NCBI GenBank assembly: GCA_003024175.1
Contig: MDYQ01000093.1
Span: 79,686-143,685 of the forward strand
Source: Planoprotostelium fungivorum
Taxonomy: Eukaryota; Evosea; Variosea; Cavosteliida; Cavosteliaceae
Direction of reading: 5' to 3'
DNA: 64,000 bases
Of this stretch, positions 10,709 through 46,375 are shown piece by piece. The notes under the pieces were generated by a model. The model made no database searches, was not told the origin of the DNA, and saw only the letters and a list, made by a program, of their open reading frames with translations. A program made the translations under genes and the position numbers. Positions within the stretch are counted from its first letter, which is position 1. Each line of letters starts with the position of its first letter.

Positions 10709-11063
10709 GGGGTGTCTATGAATGAAACGAGTTGATAGCTTCTCATCGTCTTCTCTTGACGTGACGTGTGTGATGGAGTTGTGATTCTGTGAGGAGTAAG
10801 GATGAGAGGATGAGGGATTGTGGGTTATCTGTGTGAAGATTGCATCTGGAGGCTTATCTTCGTGAATGCAATAGTTTCACCCAAAAATTATTGGCCAATT
10901 GATTCGGTTTTTCCGGTTGGTAGTCAAATGGTGCATTGAGAAGTGATCACTTCTGCTGGAATATGCACGACAAAAAAATTAGTGATCCAAATGCGTGGAC
11001 ACCAACCAGAAAAACCAAATCAATTCTCCTTGTAAACTAAAAAATCAAACACATCACATCAGC
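10709..11063. other. Intergenic spacer
   Basis: This holds the 3' flank of alpha-SNAP and the upstream region of the F-box gene. It is A/T-richer than its surroundings after 10870. I see no convincing coding, RNA or repeat feature in it. Confidence 0.5.
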
Positions 11064-12892
11064 ATGCAACACATCCCGGACGAATTGTGGACAAACGTGT
11101 TCGATTTCTTACCCACACCTGATCTTTGTTCCCCTTGCTTCACTTCTACGACTTTCCTTGATGCCGCTCGTCACATCATCAACAACCGCATCTCTGACAG
11201 CAGCAACTGGTGGCGTCATAGGAAGCAATTACCAGTGCACAGCAAAGACGTCATCCAGTGGTGGTTGTCTACCATCAGAGAGCCCACAAGATTAGAAGTG
11301 ATGGAGGTGATCCAACGAGATGTTGTAGAAGCGCTCCACCTTCTGGGCTGGAGCGACGAACACCTCTCCTCTCGTCACCGACTACTCACTCGCGAGGATG
11401 AGGACGAACGAGGATGGTGCTGGAAAGACATTCTAGAAGAAGCCACGATCAGAGGCAGCAAGAAGACAATCAGCATTCTCCATGCGAGAGAGGAGACGAT
11501 AGACGATGAGGAGCAATGGTTGAGTTCTTCCGATCGTCTCGGACGAACAGGAAATTTGGAGATGATTCGATGGGCTCTCAACGATGCCGTGGACGGTCTT
11601 CCTAATTTCGATTGGTGTGATCTCGATCCTGACCAGTTGCATTCCCTCGCATGGGAGGCATCAAAAAGTGGACACAGCCACGTCATCGTTTGGCTCAAGC
11701 AGAGAGGACTCATCGACGAGGAGATCGGCACTGCGATGTGAGTCGATGATGGAAGGTGTGGAAGCTGACGGAGGAAGGTACGGAGGAGCAGGAGAGGGAG
11801 GGAGAATGGACATGCTCATGTGGTTGGTGAGTTGTCTGTGGATTAGGAAGAGGGCTGACAGAGACAAAGGAAGAGAGTGAGATCCCGTGTGAATTTGAAG
11901 ATCTTAGTTTGTTCGAATTCATTGGATCGTTATCCGCCCTCGAATGGGCCAAAAAGGTAATTATATGGAAGAGATGCAAGATAGGATGATTCTGATCGCT
12001 TTATAGCACGATGTCGAGAATAAATCTCCTTACCCAACCATCTACGAGTCAGCTCTGGAAGGTGGCTGTACTGATGTGAGATGCACGCGACGTGTTGAAA
12101 TTCACTTTGTGTTAAGAGAAGCAGGTGATGAGATATTGCTTCGAAAATCGAGAAGGTCTGCCCGAGACTGAGATCATCGAAAGTTATCCGATGCATAATG
12201 ATTGTCTTTCTTACGAGGTAGAGTCGATTGGAACGATTGAAAGTTCCAAACAAATGATCATCTCAGGCCATTCAATTGGCAATCGACCACAAGTTGATCA
12301 CAAAAGACAGTGCGGTACTTATGCAAGAAAACTCTACGATGGACTTGTCCTTCCTCCAATGGATGCACGACAGGGGCACTCTCAATGCAGATTTGTGTGT
12401 TATCGGCGATGACGGCATCTACTGATCATCGATAGTGTAGAAGAGGCAGCGAGTCGCGATCACCTCGGCATCTTACAATGGGCAGTCGAGAAGGGTTATT
12501 CCTTCGATCGACAGTCGATGAACATCGCCATGCATTGTGGATCACCCGATCTGTTGGAGTGGCTCATAGAGAGTGAGGGTGAAGGTGAAAGTGTGGATGT
12601 TGATGGTACGACAGAATACGATGTGAAGGAAGAGCAGATGTACGAGAAGATCGTTGAGAGATCTTCCGACCAGTACGAAAATCCTAGGCCATTCAATCTA
12701 TTGGGACTAGAATGGTTGTTGCAGAGAAAGTGGAAGAAGAGTGAAGAAGAGGTGCGGAGGTGCATCGAGAGAGTGTGCACGGGATATCGATCGAAAAAGT
12801 GGATCACACCGCTTTGGGAGGAGGGAGAGGACAAGAGAATGGATGACAAGAAAGGAAAGAAGCGAAGCTCGAAGAAGATAAGAAGTGAATGA
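11064..12892 (+). CDS. F-box protein with ankyrin-like repeats
   Basis: The ATG at 11064 gives an N-terminal F-box-like segment (HIPDELWTNVFDFLPTPDL). A region of degenerate ankyrin-like repeats follows, of the type that amoebae expand: GRTGNLEMIRWAL, SKSGHSHVIVWLKQRG, LSALEWAKKH, ALEGGCTDVMRYCFENREG, DHLGILQWAVEKGY and CGSPDLLEWLIESEGEG. Such proteins usually act as substrate adaptors of SCF ubiquitin ligases; here that role is inferred from architecture. The frame stays open to about 11740, and short introns near 11740-12430 carry it on. The last exon ends in a Lys/Arg-rich tail at 12892 (GKKRSSKKIRSE). Exons between 11741 and 12430 are approximate. A start 69 bases upstream in the same frame would need a GTG and is rejected. 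Confidence 0.75.
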
Positions 12893-12964: not shown

Positions 12965-14081
12965 ATGACCGTTCTGCTCGAGTTTCGTTACTTCTGGTTC
13001 GCATTCGCAGGTGCGAAACGCGAGAGGTAGAAAACTAACAGAAACGATCACCAACCAAGTTGATCCGCAGACTCTCGCCCTCAAAACGATCTTTTTCTAA
13101 AAGATCTCAAGACGACCAACAACAAGAGAGACGTTCTCGCTGCCAACCTTAGGAGACTCACCGATGAAGAGGCCGATGGCCCAAACAAGGTGGCCACTGC
13201 TGCATGGATTACCACAGCTTCTGAGAGAGAATTGAATGGCTGGCTTACATTTTCTAAACAGGCATTCATTGACGCCGTAAAGGCGAAAGGACCCACAACC
13301 CAGGCCAGTGGTGAGTCGATTTTGATGTTCTTGATGTCGTCGTAAATAACATGTTTAAAAATGGTATCATTGAAATCAGGTATCAAACAGAGGATGGAGC
13401 AGGCAGCACAGGAATTTCCAATCATTTATTCTCGTCGACTTGCTGCAGTGAGCCCGTTCTTCTTCCTGGAACCCTTCCAGCAAGCCATCTTCTACACTGC
13501 AACATTCAACGCCTTCCTCATAATAACCTTCTTTGCAACCAGGCGCGCGATACTGGCTTCGTAAATTCTCTACCGCAACAGAGGAGGAGGCATTAGGCTC
13601 TGGCGAATCAGACTCAACCAGCCCACGGCAAACCCAAGCTCCGTGGAAAAGGACCTTTGTACCTGGTCCGCAGCTAGCTTCTATGGCCGTGGAGCGGCGC
13701 TTGCCTACATCGCAACGTTCATCGGGGTCAGAACCCCCGAGTACTTCCGCAGGAGTCGTCTCACAAAGACTGCCAACACCGTGTCCAAGACCACTGACGC
13801 TACAACCAAGTGCTGATACTGCAACTAAGGCCACTGGCACCACAACAAAGGCCGTCGACACTGCAACGAAGACTGTCAACGCCACAACAAAGGCGATTGA
13901 CACTGCCACACCTCCCACTAGTATATCCTCCAATCTATTTTATATTGTTGGATGCTGTCCAGCGTGTGGTTGCATTGTTTGGCATGCAGCGGCCTGTGTG
14001 TGCTGTGTGTTTCTATTTGGGATTGTTTTAGAGTATGTCCACAGTACACCACACCTACAACAAGCTTATAAATATCAGTAA
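12965..14081 (+). CDS. Unrecognised membrane-anchored protein, paralog A of a two-member family
   Basis: I do not recognise this family. Exon 1 (ATG at 12965) splices across a 60-base intron to an exon carrying DVLAANLRRLTDEEADGP, then AWITTASERELNGWLT and QAFIDAVKAKG (13130-13290). A third exon (13380-13563) carries a hydrophobic stretch (AIFYTATFNAFLIITFFA). The frame then meets a TAA inside a 36-base GT-AG candidate intron (13563-13598). It continues with TWSAASFYGRGAALAYIATF to about 13800, where a Thr/Ala/Lys repeat (DTATKA-like, 30-base period) slips by one base. A further hydrophobic segment ends at 14081. The minus-strand gene at 44.6-45.0 kb shares the domain (32 of 47 residues identical by hand alignment). 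The 3' structure is uncertain; a true end near 13805 is possible. Confidence 0.6.
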
Positions 14082-14344: not shown

Positions 14345-17300
14345 TTATAAAAAGGAATAGAGGACGGGAGCTAACATGAGACCATGAAACATGGCCAAGA
14401 GGAAGACAGAGAAGAAAAACTTGAACATGATTCGCAACAGTTCGTGGGAAGCGAATCCCAGGACACTGACACCAATGAAGCTCGTGAGACTGGCACTGAA
14501 CACACTCGGTCCTCTACTCGTGTTCAGCACTATCTTCACATGTCTCTTCTCACATCTTGCTGAGACCACTGATGATGGCATCGTATCTCAGATTCATCGG
14601 CTGTGGCTCATCTTCCTCCAGACGATCGAGAGCCCTCCTGTATTCCGTGTGAATGGAGTGTCCAACGTGAGTGCAAGCGTCCACTGCCAATCCCAAATTG
14701 AGAAGGAGAACGGTGAGGGTCATGTTGTTCAGCCCGATGTTCCACAGCCACATCATCCCCAGTAGATCTGCGTACCATTCAGAACGAAAGAGAAGCGGAA
14801 AGTATCACCCAACATCGTGGCAAAGAGAGATACGACGACTAGAATGGATATCTTGATGTCACCCAAGAAGAAAAAGGTGAACAAGAAGATGCATGCTGGA
14901 CGATGATGAGATCAGATGAGATCAGATGATCAGATGATCAGATGATCAGATGATCAGATGATCAGATGATCAGATGATCAGATGAGAGATCACCCGCGAC
15001 AGCCGAATAGCTCTTGACATTGTTCTTCACCATGCCAACGTACTGTTCCCAGTACAGATACCTCATAGAGTACGGATAGATCTGTACATCAGCATAAGCT
15101 CTGCACTGTCTTCGAGTCGTTATCATTGCCTCCGCCTTCTCTGTGTCAGTGTCCAGCGTGATGTGCTTTCCCTGCATTCTCGCCGCCTTGATCGTTCCTG
15201 TTTTCACATCATCATCCACACTTGGTCTCTGTCTCACCGAATTGGAAGATGATATCGTCGATGTACTTGTACCCCCCTCTTGGATCAGCCAGGAACAGAT
15301 AGAGGTAGATGTAAAAGTCTTTCTCCGTCGTGGGACGTCCTTCTTCTGTGACTGTGATGTTGTCGATGCTCTCCACATACATCTCGATCAGATTCTCGAT
15401 GAAATTTGCGCTACCTGAAACATTCAGTTCGTGATGATACATGGTGAGATGGAATGACCTGGAGGTAAAAGTTGACGACTCTGTCTCAACATCGCTTCAA
15501 AGTCCTTCAGATCGGGTAGAGGCTTCTTCACGTACTCTAAGTAGTCACACATCCAACAGGAGATGGTACCGACGATGTAAGGTGACGATGTCATCTTCGA
15601 TACGTCAGTGAGAGCAACACGGATGACTCACGTTACGGTGGAAGTAGATCAATTGATCTTGCACGGCTGGCTTGTGATAATCTGCGGGACCGCTGACGAA
15701 ATCAACGGCGTCTTCTAAGCCTTTAAAGTATCTGGAGAGATAAGATGGACGTTAGCACGGTGAACCCACTCGTCCACTTTGATCGTGAAGGGAAGGATGT
15801 ACGTATCGTGAGGTAGTACATCGGCGTCTGTCAATCCACCCTCCTGTGGGGGATTTAGCACCGATAGTGATGACTCCATTCACCAATTGTGTGGTACCGT
15901 AGATAGAAACGGAGGCAAGAGCGATGGCCAATAGGATCTATGTTACATCAATGATGAAATCGAATCGTATGACATCGTCCTTCTGATGAGAGCTACGAAG
16001 ATGATGTGACGTCGATGTACTCGATAGATGATGGATGGATCACCATAACGATGCGAGTGACACGATGGAGGAGGAAGGGTCCGAAATATCTCCTGACGAA
16101 CCATTCTCCCATCGACTGTGGTGTCTCTTGGGTCATCTCTTGCATCTCTTCCTCGTTCATCCTCTCGTACTGATCTGCCCTCTTGATGCAAGGCACACAA
16201 TCGAATCTGTTCTGCTCTGCCCTCCTCTCGTTGATGGCCAGTAAAGCCACGAAGAGTGTCATCTGATAGATGAAATCGATCAACACCGCCACCGCATTGA
16301 AGAGACAGAATCCAGATATGCCCGGAAGTGGACTGGTTGATCCTGCGATGAACGCGATGAAGTCTGTCGATTCGAATTTGCATTTCGTGTGGATGGAGAG
16401 ACTCACTTGTTAGTGAAGTGAGGGTGATGGATGAGCCAACTTGAGACAAAGCGGTGGAGATCCTCTGCTCGTGATGTCCCCTGGGGAGTCTCTCGTAAGC
16501 GCTCATCAATATGAACTGTTGATATCAATCGACGATGACGTGGATCACATCACGATGTCATCCGTTCCGATGCTTAAGATGAGGAAGGGCATGACCAATA
16601 CGGCGGAGGAGAAGGTGGCATTCAACCAGCCACAGATTCCAAAGGAAGTGATGATGGCCAACAAGATACCCACCACACCACAGAATCCTATTTGAATCAG
16701 ATGTAAGAGGGAGAGAATGGATCACCCAGTGTGACTTTGGATCGAATCAAATTGATGCGAAAGAGTGCGAAGGAGATGTAAGCCACCATGAGAGAGAATG
16801 TGATGACAAAGAGTGGGATGTCGTTCTTCGTTCCTCTCTGTACTTCCTGTGCTTGACTCACCTGTTCTTCGTTACAAACTTATTTTTATCTCTCTCCTAC
16901 ACGATTACATTCGACATGGATGATTCAACGATGTTCATCATTAAACGAAAGACATTTAACTTACGGGAGCTCTTCGATAGACTGTAAAGTGAGCCGATTC
17001 AAATCGACCCAAGACATTGACAAAGTGGGTCTCCCACAGATCAGCCTTCTCTTTCGTCCCCTCGTTGTTCTTGATGAGATAAGCGAAAGCCATGGCAGAC
17101 GCCCGGACGATAAGTTGTCCAGTCACATTGTAACCTCCCAATAAACTCGTGCTCGGTATCTGATCGGTGTGTCACGATCATCACGTCGTGGAGATCCATC
17201 ACCTGAAACGGTGTATTGTCCACTCTCGATACTGTGGCGTGGATGTCTCTGTCCATCTGGATCTCACTTTCCTTCTCTCCCCACAACCTCAAGATCGAAC

Positions 17301-44595: not shown

Positions 44596-45018
44596 TTATT
44601 TGTGAGATATCGACCTTAGGTAGAAGGCTCCTCCTGTAAAAAAAGTAACTCCCCCAAGAATCACGGCCGCGTCCTTGGTCCTCTCGAGCCAGGTTGATGT
44701 TGCCCACGTTCGCCCGTCCATTCTTGTGTCTTCTTCCTCTTGGTCTGGCTACCAGTTGATTAAAAGTGTGTATTAGACATACAGTAACTCACCTTTACTA
44801 TTTACGGCGTCGATAAACGCCTGATCGGATAATGTGAGCCAGATGTCTAACTCTATTTCTGTAGCCGTATTTATCCATGTACCAGTGGCCGCCTTCGCTG
44901 GTCCGCTCGCCTCTTGATCTGTTAGACGTCGAACATCAGCGGCGAGAGCGTGTCTCTTGGCGTCGATAATTGTAAGTTGACTCAAATCAGAGACATCTCG
45001 AGGGCGAGGAGTGGTCAT
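44596..45018 (-). CDS. Unrecognised small membrane-anchored protein, paralog B
   Basis: The ATG at 45018 (MTTPRPRDVSDL) leads to ALAADVRRLTDQEASGP, GTWINTATEIELDIWLT and QAFIDAVNSKG. This is the same domain as the gene at 13.0-14.1 kb, with the intron in the same phase after the Lys-Gly. Splicing across 44747-44791 can give DQEEEDTRMDGRTWATS and a hydrophobic anchor (AAVILGGVTFFTGGAFYL), ending at 44596. The alternative acceptor three bases into the same region gives a basic tail without an anchor. The helical domain plus anchor resembles nothing I can name. It is head-to-head with the gene at 45166 (147 bases between starts), with a TATA box between them. Confidence 0.68.
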
Positions 45019-45051
45019 TTCAACTGCAAAGGGTAAAGATTCAATCTTTGG

Positions 45052-45062
45052 TATATATATAA
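45052..45062 (+). promoter_or_regulatory. TATA box between divergent genes
   Basis: TATATATATAA lies 104 bases upstream of the ATG at 45166 and 34 bases upstream of the minus-strand start at 45018. The plus-strand gene is the likelier target by distance and orientation. It is the clearest TATA element in the window. Confidence 0.5.
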
Positions 45063-45165
45063 CAAGAAAGAATATCCAAATAAACCGGTTGGTGATCCGT
45101 TTCGTTCAGCGAAGAAAACTCGTACCTGCGAATGCGAATCTGAAATTGAACACAATCACATCACA

Positions 45166-46375
45166 ATGGACAACACGACACCTACCGTTCAACCCACTCT
45201 CAGCCAGCTCCTCCCAATGGCTGCGTCAGACCAATTCAAATCCTTCACTGGTCACTTCGATAATGCAAGAAATGATACCGTCCAGACAATGAAGATTCTT
45301 CAGACCTTCTGGGCTCTAGCACAAAACGAGGGCGCTCGTCTCGTATCTGCTGAACAACGCCTCAACAGTTGCACTGCGGCATCGGAGGAAATGCTTGGTC
45401 AGACCGACGCTCTCGTTAATCGTCTTCTTGAAAACGGCCTCTTCGAGTTCAACCTCCCTCCTGCTCTATGGGTGGACCCTAATTCGCAACAGTATCAAGA
45501 TACGTACAACGACCTCGCCACTCAATACCGAGCCGCCGACGAGAAATTTGGGTCAAGGACGCTAATCAGCGTGAGTTTCGTCGCCTGAAGAGGTCCATGC
45601 AGGACAGACGCGTTGAGGAGGATCGCCAGCTGAAGGCGATAGAAGCCCAAATTAAATCTGGTGGAGCAGTCCCTTTTGCCGCCAAGCCTGGACCCAAACG
45701 CCAAATGATTGCCGGTCCTGCCACCCCTGGCCTTCGACTCTATATAGAGGGTGTTCAGAGGGATATATCCCATATTAACCTGGATGAGGATGCCGATCAC
45801 CGAGTTTCTACATAGAAGGGAATCCCTTAATATGTGAACATATCGACGCGTTATCCACTCTGACCTGTCAACAGTTACAACGCGACCCAACCTTAGCAGA
45901 CCTCCCATCAGATACAGCTGTGAAGTCCAATTCACTCCTGACTTGTGCGCCTGTAAGGAGATTACAGATCTGAGGGATGATCGTTCTGATAGTGAGATAT
46001 TGTCATCCATCATTATAGTTGCCATCATCATCGTCACTCTTCATCATTGCTGCTTGTCATCGTCATCATCAACGTTACTCATCATCATCATCGTTACTCA
46101 TCATCATCATCAACGTTACTCATCATCATCATCATCGTTACTCATCATCAACCACCCTTCTGATGAGTCCATCCTGACGTCTCTGATCACTGCATCATCT
46201 ATCACAGCCGCAAGGTCAAGATCATGTTCAAGATGCGAGCTCTTGGATCAGGATAAGCACGCGGAATCTGCTGGCTCCCTTGGGTCCTCAACAGAGCACT
46301 CGGGCCTCTCATTTACCATCGGACACCAGTAAAAGCCTTCCAAGTCTCATACCCCAAGACCTCCTTCAACGTTAA
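45166..46375 (+). CDS. Unrecognised protein, divergent partner of paralog B
   Basis: No family is recognised. The ATG at 45166 opens a helical, Gln/Asn-rich sequence: QLLPMAASDQFKSFTGHFDN, MKILQTFWALAQNEGARLVS, RLLENGLFEFNLPPALWVD and YNDLATQYRAADEKF. At about 45549 the coding frame changes by one base and continues WVKDANQREFRRLKRSMQD and AAKPGPKRQMIAGPATPGL. Either a very short intron (for example 45508-45536) or a frameshift lies there. A GT-AG intron (45752-45809) leads to EGNPLICEHIDALSTLTCQQ. A donor at 45953 and an acceptor before 46210 enclose the CAT-rich microsatellite. The last exon would end at 46375. Coding texture is good, but the 3' half is tentative. Confidence 0.5.
46012..46150. 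repeat. CAT/ATC-rich microsatellite, probably intronic
   Basis: Runs of CATCATCAT are punctuated by CGTTACT, giving an imperfect period of about 24 bases (GTTACTCATCATCATCATC). It follows a strong GTAAGG donor at 45955 and precedes a CACAG acceptor at 46209, which supports an intronic position. Confidence 0.8.

What the first reader, a model, noticed from the sequence alone, without database searches (positions are those of the whole stretch)
12965..14081. Unassigned domain family, copy A: helical RLTDxEAxGP ... WLTxSxQAFIDAV protein with membrane anchor
A and B (44.6-45.0 kb) align over 47 residues with 32 identities by hand, including RLTD-x-EA-x-GP-x-K and QAFIDAV-x-x-KG, and share the phase-1 intron directly after that block or just beyond it. 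The N-terminal stretch (ALAA/VLAA-N/D-x-RRL) also aligns. I know no family with this pattern. Two dispersed copies with a C-terminal hydrophobic segment suggest a lineage-specific membrane-anchored adaptor or defence/recognition family.
Basis: partly seen in the sequence, partly recalled or inferred. Interest (0 to 1): 0.72.

Follow-up and report, generated by a model that had tools for sequence, protein, structure and literature searches.

The report
Shared protein header with swapped tails
A protist-like genome carries about 27 copies of one small unnamed helical protein front piece joined, mostly through an intron, to different back ends (some membrane-like, some resembling a DNA-cutting enzyme plus kinase), which suggests a modular toolkit for biological conflict whose function is still untested.

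Summary
The core observation holds. Blocks A (13073-13291, +) and B (44791-45018, -) are homologous: 41 of 72 residues, and 32 of 47 in the named block. Each is followed by a phase-1 splice donor.

The block is a header domain with 28 matches, 27 copies by my count, in the 36.9 Mb assembly. dN/dS is below 1 in 55 of 55 pairs of 11 copies. It is modelled as four helices (pLDDT 83.7), with no relative found in Pfam, PDB, Foldseek, viral or prokaryotic collections. DNA similarity centres on the promoter/5'UTR and header exon; beyond it I read at least eight tail types.

Four copies carry a kinase-containing module (Pfam PF17667; best E 3.1e-11) with a PD...EFK nuclease-like motif. One copy, L040, is a clear exon swap at the 5' splice site.

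B's tail frame is unresolved, so "membrane-anchored" is not a family trait.

Best reading: a new header domain in a CR-effector-like or EAD-like modular system, partly pseudogenised. Function is inferred.

The parts
12965..13010 (+). Copy A, exon 1 (corresponds to a 5'UTR exon in B); supplies A's only in-frame ATG in this model
   Evidence: in frame through splice to the header exon; header-exon ATG absent in A
12998..13016 (+). 19-base element TTCGCATTCGCAGGTGCGA holding the inferred 5' splice site of intron 1
   Evidence: 14 exact and 7 one-mismatch places in the assembly
13011..13070 (+). A, intron 1 (60 bases, phase 1), model
13071..13310 (+). A, header exon
13073..13291 (+). A, header domain
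   Evidence: 41/72 identical to B; alignment A1
13311..13379 (+). A, intron 2 (69 bases, phase 1), model
   Evidence: intron homologous in L031 and L040
13380..13564 (+). A, tail exon of type T1 with one hydrophobic segment (about 13484-13540), ending at TAA 13562-13564
13565..14081 (+). Frame-broken remainder of the T1 tail, plus sequence past the relatives' stop; not part of A's open frame
45120..45138 (-). Copy B, 19-base element
45024..45125 (-). B, inferred 5'UTR intron
   Evidence: donor and acceptor signals
44791..45018 (-). B, header domain from its ATG; exon ends at 44793
   Evidence: modelled as four helices
44745..44792 (-). B, intron after the header, phase 1; acceptor either after 44749 or after 44745
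   Evidence: two AG acceptors 4 bases apart
44596..44744 (-). B, tail exon T3 in the membrane-like frame (alternative frame is basic and hydrophilic)
   Evidence: hydropathy 1.39; L045 has a stop in this frame
45166..45588 (+). Divergent neighbour gene (first open stretch), repeated in the genome and found in pieces upstream of several headers
   Evidence: 29 matches; upstream DNA 42 match pieces

Best explanation
A and B belong to a family of about 27 genes and gene remnants built on one plan: a shared promoter/5'UTR region, one exon encoding a ~75-residue four-helix header, an intron (phase 1 in most copies read), and a tail that differs between groups. Shown: homology, copy number, purifying selection on the header, different tails, one clean header/tail exchange at the 5' splice site, and a kinase-type tail with a nuclease-like motif on four copies. 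Inferred: the header is a non-catalytic recruiting or targeting module and the tails are the active parts (membrane-acting, or nuclease plus kinase). New combinations arise by recombination at the splice site while promoter and header stay constant. The proteins serve in biological conflict (against prey, parasites or invading DNA), working like the headers of CR (Crinkler-RHS) effectors or bacterial effector-associated domains. Many copies, A probably among them, are decaying.
For: 28 matches in the assembly; similarity centred on promoter, 5'UTR and header; dN/dS below 1 in 55 of 55 pairs, median 0.21; four-helix model, pLDDT 83.7; L040 header 190/234 to L034 and 144/231 to L031, but 471/504 to L031 after the splice site, T1 as one clade rejected, p-AU 2e-63; PF17667 in L038 (E 3.1e-11) and L044 over cut-off, L046 under it, L026 over it in one of two pieces; PD...EFK motif in four of four; the same module at C17 with another N-terminal exon; analogous plans described in passages of PMC5289972 and PMC8195603.
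Against: No transcripts. Many copies are broken, A included. The tails of A and B match no described domain; the L031 (T1), L029, L035 and L036 tails were scanned and empty, L035 and L039 again. PF17667's kinase part also matches ordinary kinases: the family search rang in 6 of 14 control genomes, 2 over cut-off, and L038's best PDB matches are tau-tubulin kinases. The nuclease fold could not be tested (pLDDT 35). T4, T5 and T8 as single clades are not rejected (p 0.052, 0.154, 0.134). L031-L040 tails show weak constraint (dN 0.044, dS 0.064). No sensor protein with a header was seen.
Confidence: 0.5

Rival explanations
1. Mobile promoter-plus-first-exon. The duplicating unit is a passively or selfishly copied 5' segment (part of the divergent gene, promoter, header exon) that lands upstream of arbitrary sequence; most chimeras have no function and decay.
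For: Similarity centred on the 5' part; divergent-gene fragments at many places; 9 of the 21 near-exact 19-base elements lie at no known header, one beside weak Sortilin-Vps10 matches (L051); many broken copies.
Against: Header under purifying selection; the same tails recur with several headers; a 523-residue open kinase-type tail on L038.
Confidence: 0.27
2. Plain membrane-anchored adaptor family: the header is the working domain and the hydrophobic tail only holds it in a membrane.
For: Hydrophobic segments in the tails of A, L035 and L039.
Against: Four copies carry a kinase-type tail instead; T4 is better read as hydrophilic; B is ambiguous.
Confidence: 0.12
3. The header and its neighbour are genes of a transposable element.
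For: Dispersed copies and a repeated divergent gene. Downstream of the 19-base element at C1 (L050) I recognised by eye a stretch like a retrotransposon reverse transcriptase; this was not searched.
Against: No transposase or integrase family came up in the tails scanned; the header is selected as protein. Terminal repeats and target-site duplications were not specifically searched for.
Confidence: 0.08

Closest known systems
CR (Crinkler-RHS-type) effectors with REase plus kinase C-termini (Pfam PF17667, FunK1-type; the link between the two is recalled)
   Same: N-terminal header plus variable C-terminal module; four copies carry a PF17667-type module with a PD...EFK motif; helical headers exist in that class (PMC5289972, passages).
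   Different: No ubiquitin-like fold and no LFLAK or HVLVVVP motif in the header; the joint is an intron; several tails, those of A and B included, are not recognised enzymes; delivery untested.
Bacterial effector-associated domains (EADs) and Death-like adaptors
   Same: Small terminal, probably non-catalytic helical domain coupled to many different effectors within one genome (PMC8195603, passages).
   Different: No sequence or convincing structural match; no sensor or NTPase partner with the header found; homotypic binding untested.
Exon shuffling by recombination at introns
   Same: Exchange at a splice junction keeps the frame and swaps the downstream exon; L040 shows one event.
   Different: Promoter and first coding exon are the constant part, and it is seen within one genome.

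Membership tests
CR (Crinkler-RHS-type) effectors | N-terminal header joined to variable C-terminal domains | tested here: met
   One header, at least eight tail types by my reading; genome searches of tails
CR (Crinkler-RHS-type) effectors | REase plus kinase (or similar) C-terminal domain, family level | tested here: inconclusive
   PF17667 over cut-off in L038, L044 and one piece of L026, under it in L046; PD...EFK in four of four; REase fold not testable because the model failed
CR (Crinkler-RHS-type) effectors | Recognised catalytic C-terminal domain in A and B themselves | tested here: inconclusive
   The T1 tail of L031, homologous to A's, matches no Pfam family; B's tail was not scanned and its frame is unresolved
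CR (Crinkler-RHS-type) effectors | Ubiquitin-like header with LxLFLAK motif (Phytophthora type; not needed of all CR headers) | tested here: not met
   Header is modelled as four helices; no such motif in A1
CR (Crinkler-RHS-type) effectors | HVLVVVP junction motif | tested here: not met
   Not in A1 or the junctions read
CR (Crinkler-RHS-type) effectors | Translocation into a target cell or nucleus | not testable with these tools
   needs experiment
EAD / Death-like adaptor domains | Small terminal helical domain coupled to many different effectors | tested here: met
EAD / Death-like adaptor domains | Sequence or fold relation to a known EAD or Death-like domain | tested here: inconclusive
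   No Pfam match; no clear structural match; profile-profile search against EADs not available
EAD / Death-like adaptor domains | The same domain on a sensor or core protein of the system | tested here: inconclusive
   None noticed at the loci read; not all copies were read in full
   hydropathy 1.63 over 19 residues, borderline
   1.39, and frame depends on acceptor

The most novel reading that the evidence does not exclude
An undescribed eukaryotic conflict system in which one promoter-plus-header exon acts as a plug: a new helical recruiting domain is recombined at its 5' splice site with membrane-acting, nuclease/kinase-like and other tails, giving the cell a polymorphic effector repertoire under one regulatory switch, a eukaryotic counterpart of bacterial polymorphic effector and EAD systems.
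Probability: 0.27. Interest if true: 0.8.

Novelty: new variant of a known kind. Interest (0 to 1): 0.55.

Why it matters
If right, it is a compact and testable case of how a eukaryote builds a polymorphic effector family: constant promoter and header, a defined recombination point, and several alternative tails in one small genome. It would also add a new header or adaptor domain to the CR-effector and EAD-like repertoire.

Tried and rejected

Dropped ideas: that L050 and L052 encode remote header relatives (the header profile did not find them); that the T4 tails are membrane-like (pN/pS 0.54 in that frame against 0.32 in the hydrophilic one, which is also the frame reached by the phase-1 donor). 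I guessed from memory that the host is the amoebozoan Planoprotostelium fungivorum; no call confirms it and nothing depends on it.

Literature: searches were. Passages seen: PMC5289972 and PMC8195603. Everything else was seen in listings with the starts of abstracts. The primary CR paper (Zhang et al. 2016) was not read. That this header is undescribed rests on the Pfam and PDB scans and on these searches, which cannot search by sequence.

Full report
WHAT WAS CHECKED. BLASTP between window:13073-13291:+ and window:44791-45018:- gives 41/72 identities (E 2e-27 for that single comparison); the RRLTD...KG stretch has 32/47 by hand on that alignment. Splice signals give A as 12965-13010, 13071-13310 and 13380-13564, introns of 60 and 69 bases, both phase 1; B's header exon ends at 44793, phase 1. 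These are models from sequence; no transcript data were at hand.

HOW MANY. A 55-residue query finds 28 places in the 36.86 Mb, 471-contig assembly. L020 and L028 are two pieces of one frame-broken copy, which leaves 27 copies on 24 contigs; the tool calls such counts lower bounds. A degenerate copy was seen besides at C465 (L049). In 22 sources scanned (window, L029-L048, L026) 10 uninterrupted headers from ATG to the final KG or KD were found. Others have a lost start, a stop or a frameshift, for example L030, L039, L045 and L046.

THE DOMAIN. An alignment of 11 of the 27 copies has 23 invariant columns. NG86 dN/dS is below 1 in 55 of 55 pairs, 0.08 to 0.68, median 0.21, A-B 0.23; the alignment holds the ten copies with intact headers plus A, and some pairs have saturated dS, so the values are rough. 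The model has four helices (9-31, 39-51, 54-61, 65-75), mean pLDDT 83.7, pTM 0.67. No described family was found. No eukaryotic collection was available, so lineage restriction is untested.

THE PLAN OF THE GENES. DNA similarity between copies centres on about 500 bases before to 250 after the header start. The 19-base element TTCGCATTCGCAGGTRCGA holds the inferred donor of a 5'UTR intron in B and of intron 1 in A. The assembly has 14 exact and 7 one-mismatch places, and 31 places at up to 2 mismatches against 1 for the reversed-pattern control. By coordinates 12 of those 21 lie within about 1.3 kb upstream of a header copy (C465 counted; at C448 the element is inverted). The other 9 include one by weak, below-cut-off Sortilin-Vps10 matches (L051) and two copies of another coding exon (L050, L052). 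DNA upstream of B gives 42 match pieces and the divergent gene 29 matches, so the copied unit often includes part of that neighbour.

THE TAILS. Beyond the intron the copies differ. By my reading the donor is phase 1 in A, B, L030, L031, L033-L038, L040, L041 and L043, phase 2 in L029, and not placed in L032 and L039. Types, assigned by eye from translations and DNA matches and genome searches: T1 (A, L031, L040; 4 matches with C465); T2 (L029, L033); T3 (B, L041, L045; 3 matches); T4 (L030, L036, L037 and the C47 and C274 copies; 9 matches, of which 6 strong ones at header loci, 2 partial at C219 and 1 weak at C62); T5 (L038, L046, L044, L026); T6 (L035; 5 matches, the best other one, C267:3082, without a header in the 1.05 kb read); T7 (L034); T8 (L032, L039; the L039 tail also at C469, without a header in the 1.65 kb read). 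In T4 the frame first taken as membrane-like has pN/pS 0.54 and the hydrophilic one 0.32.

THE KINASE-TYPE TAIL. T5 matches PF17667: L038 43.1 bits, E 3.1e-11, two stretches; L044 25.0; L046 16.9, under the cut-off of 24.1; L026 26.7 in one piece and 24.0 in another. Caution: the family search of the assembly gave 10 matches, 6 over cut-off, and rang in 6 of 14 control genomes, 2 over cut-off, and L038's best PDB matches are tau-tubulin kinases, so the kinase part alone is not specific. The upstream part (profile positions 15-69) matched at two places, both at header loci. A PD...EFK motif is present in all four copies; that this region is a restriction-endonuclease fold is recalled and fits the motif, but the structure model failed (pLDDT 35). 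A 153-residue query over it gives 6 matches at 5 loci; 4 are header loci and the fifth, C17, has another N-terminal exon and also a PD...EFK motif. One of the four, L026, has a stop inside.

EXON EXCHANGE. L040's header is 190/234 identical to L034 and 187/234 to L030, but 144/231 to L031; after the GGTGAGTC at the 5' splice site it is 471/504 identical to L031. In a header tree of 18 copies the two main clades have support 100/100, and holding the three T1 copies together is rejected (log-likelihood 74.9 lower, p-AU 2e-63). T4 (0.052), T5 (0.154) and T8 (0.134) are not rejected. Of the 27 copies, six (L042, L048, L025, L023, L024, L027) were in neither tree, and L026, L043 and L047 were only in the first. 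One exchange is strongly shown; others remain possible.

A is either a shortened protein with one borderline hydrophobic segment (1.63) or a pseudogene; its header's dN/dS (A-L031 0.33) averages over history and does not decide. B's header is intact. Two AG acceptors 4 bases apart lead to a membrane-like tail (1.39) or a basic hydrophilic one; L045 has a stop in the membrane-like frame, and there are too few changes to decide. The L031-L040 T1 tails show only weak constraint (dN 0.044, dS 0.064).

READING. Promoter and header are constant, the tail is variable, and the joint is a splice site. This is the plan of CR effectors (header plus variable C-terminus, REase plus kinase in about one-sixth of C-termini, helical headers known; PMC5289972, passages), and it works like the EAD principle (small helical domains that recruit different effectors; PMC8195603, passages). 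Membership in the CR class is met for architecture, inconclusive for the C-terminal domain, and not met for the ubiquitin-like header and junction motif. I file the family as a new variant of a known kind, function inferred. On checking I lowered two odds slightly (best reading to 0.50, novel case to 0.27), because the PF17667 control had been left out and the phase-1 statement had been too wide.

LIMITS. One genome, no transcripts, no eukaryotic comparison set, partial gene models, recalled fold and host identity, and many broken copies, which keep the mobile-first-exon rival alive.

Noticed in passing
window 45166-45588 (+) and beyond: Divergent neighbour of B (MDNTTPTVQ...) is a repeated gene: 29 matches in the assembly, a 326-residue open frame at C396, fragments upstream of several headers; no Pfam match to its first 140 residues.
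   Followed up: partly
L051 (C321), L050 (C1), L052 (C412), L053 (C469): The 19-base 5' element also sits upstream of sequence without a header: weak Sortilin-Vps10 matches at L051, another shared coding exon at L050 and L052, a T8-type tail further on at L053.
   Followed up: partly
L054 (C17:42200-44500): A kinase-type tail with PD...EFK motif but a different N-terminal exon (LTAWKNAVQGAGPAQGATG at its end), perhaps a second header type; the header profile does not match it.
   Followed up: partly
L040, oriented +900 to +1400 from its header: A second copy of the promoter/5' region lies downstream of the T1 tail, ahead of a reading frame with a signal-peptide-like start (MRICSLLLILVATSTS); no Pfam match.
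   Followed up: partly
L024/L027 (C47:8833-12526): Two headerlike copies about 600 bases apart in tandem; both lack the first half of the header.
   Followed up: no
window 14925-14985 and 46030-46150: Simple repeats (GATCAGAT-type; CATCAT-rich) near the two copies.
   Followed up: no
window 10995-12892 (+): Open frames just upstream of A that look by eye like an F-box-type start (IPDELWTNVFDFLP) and following repeats; not searched.
   Followed up: no
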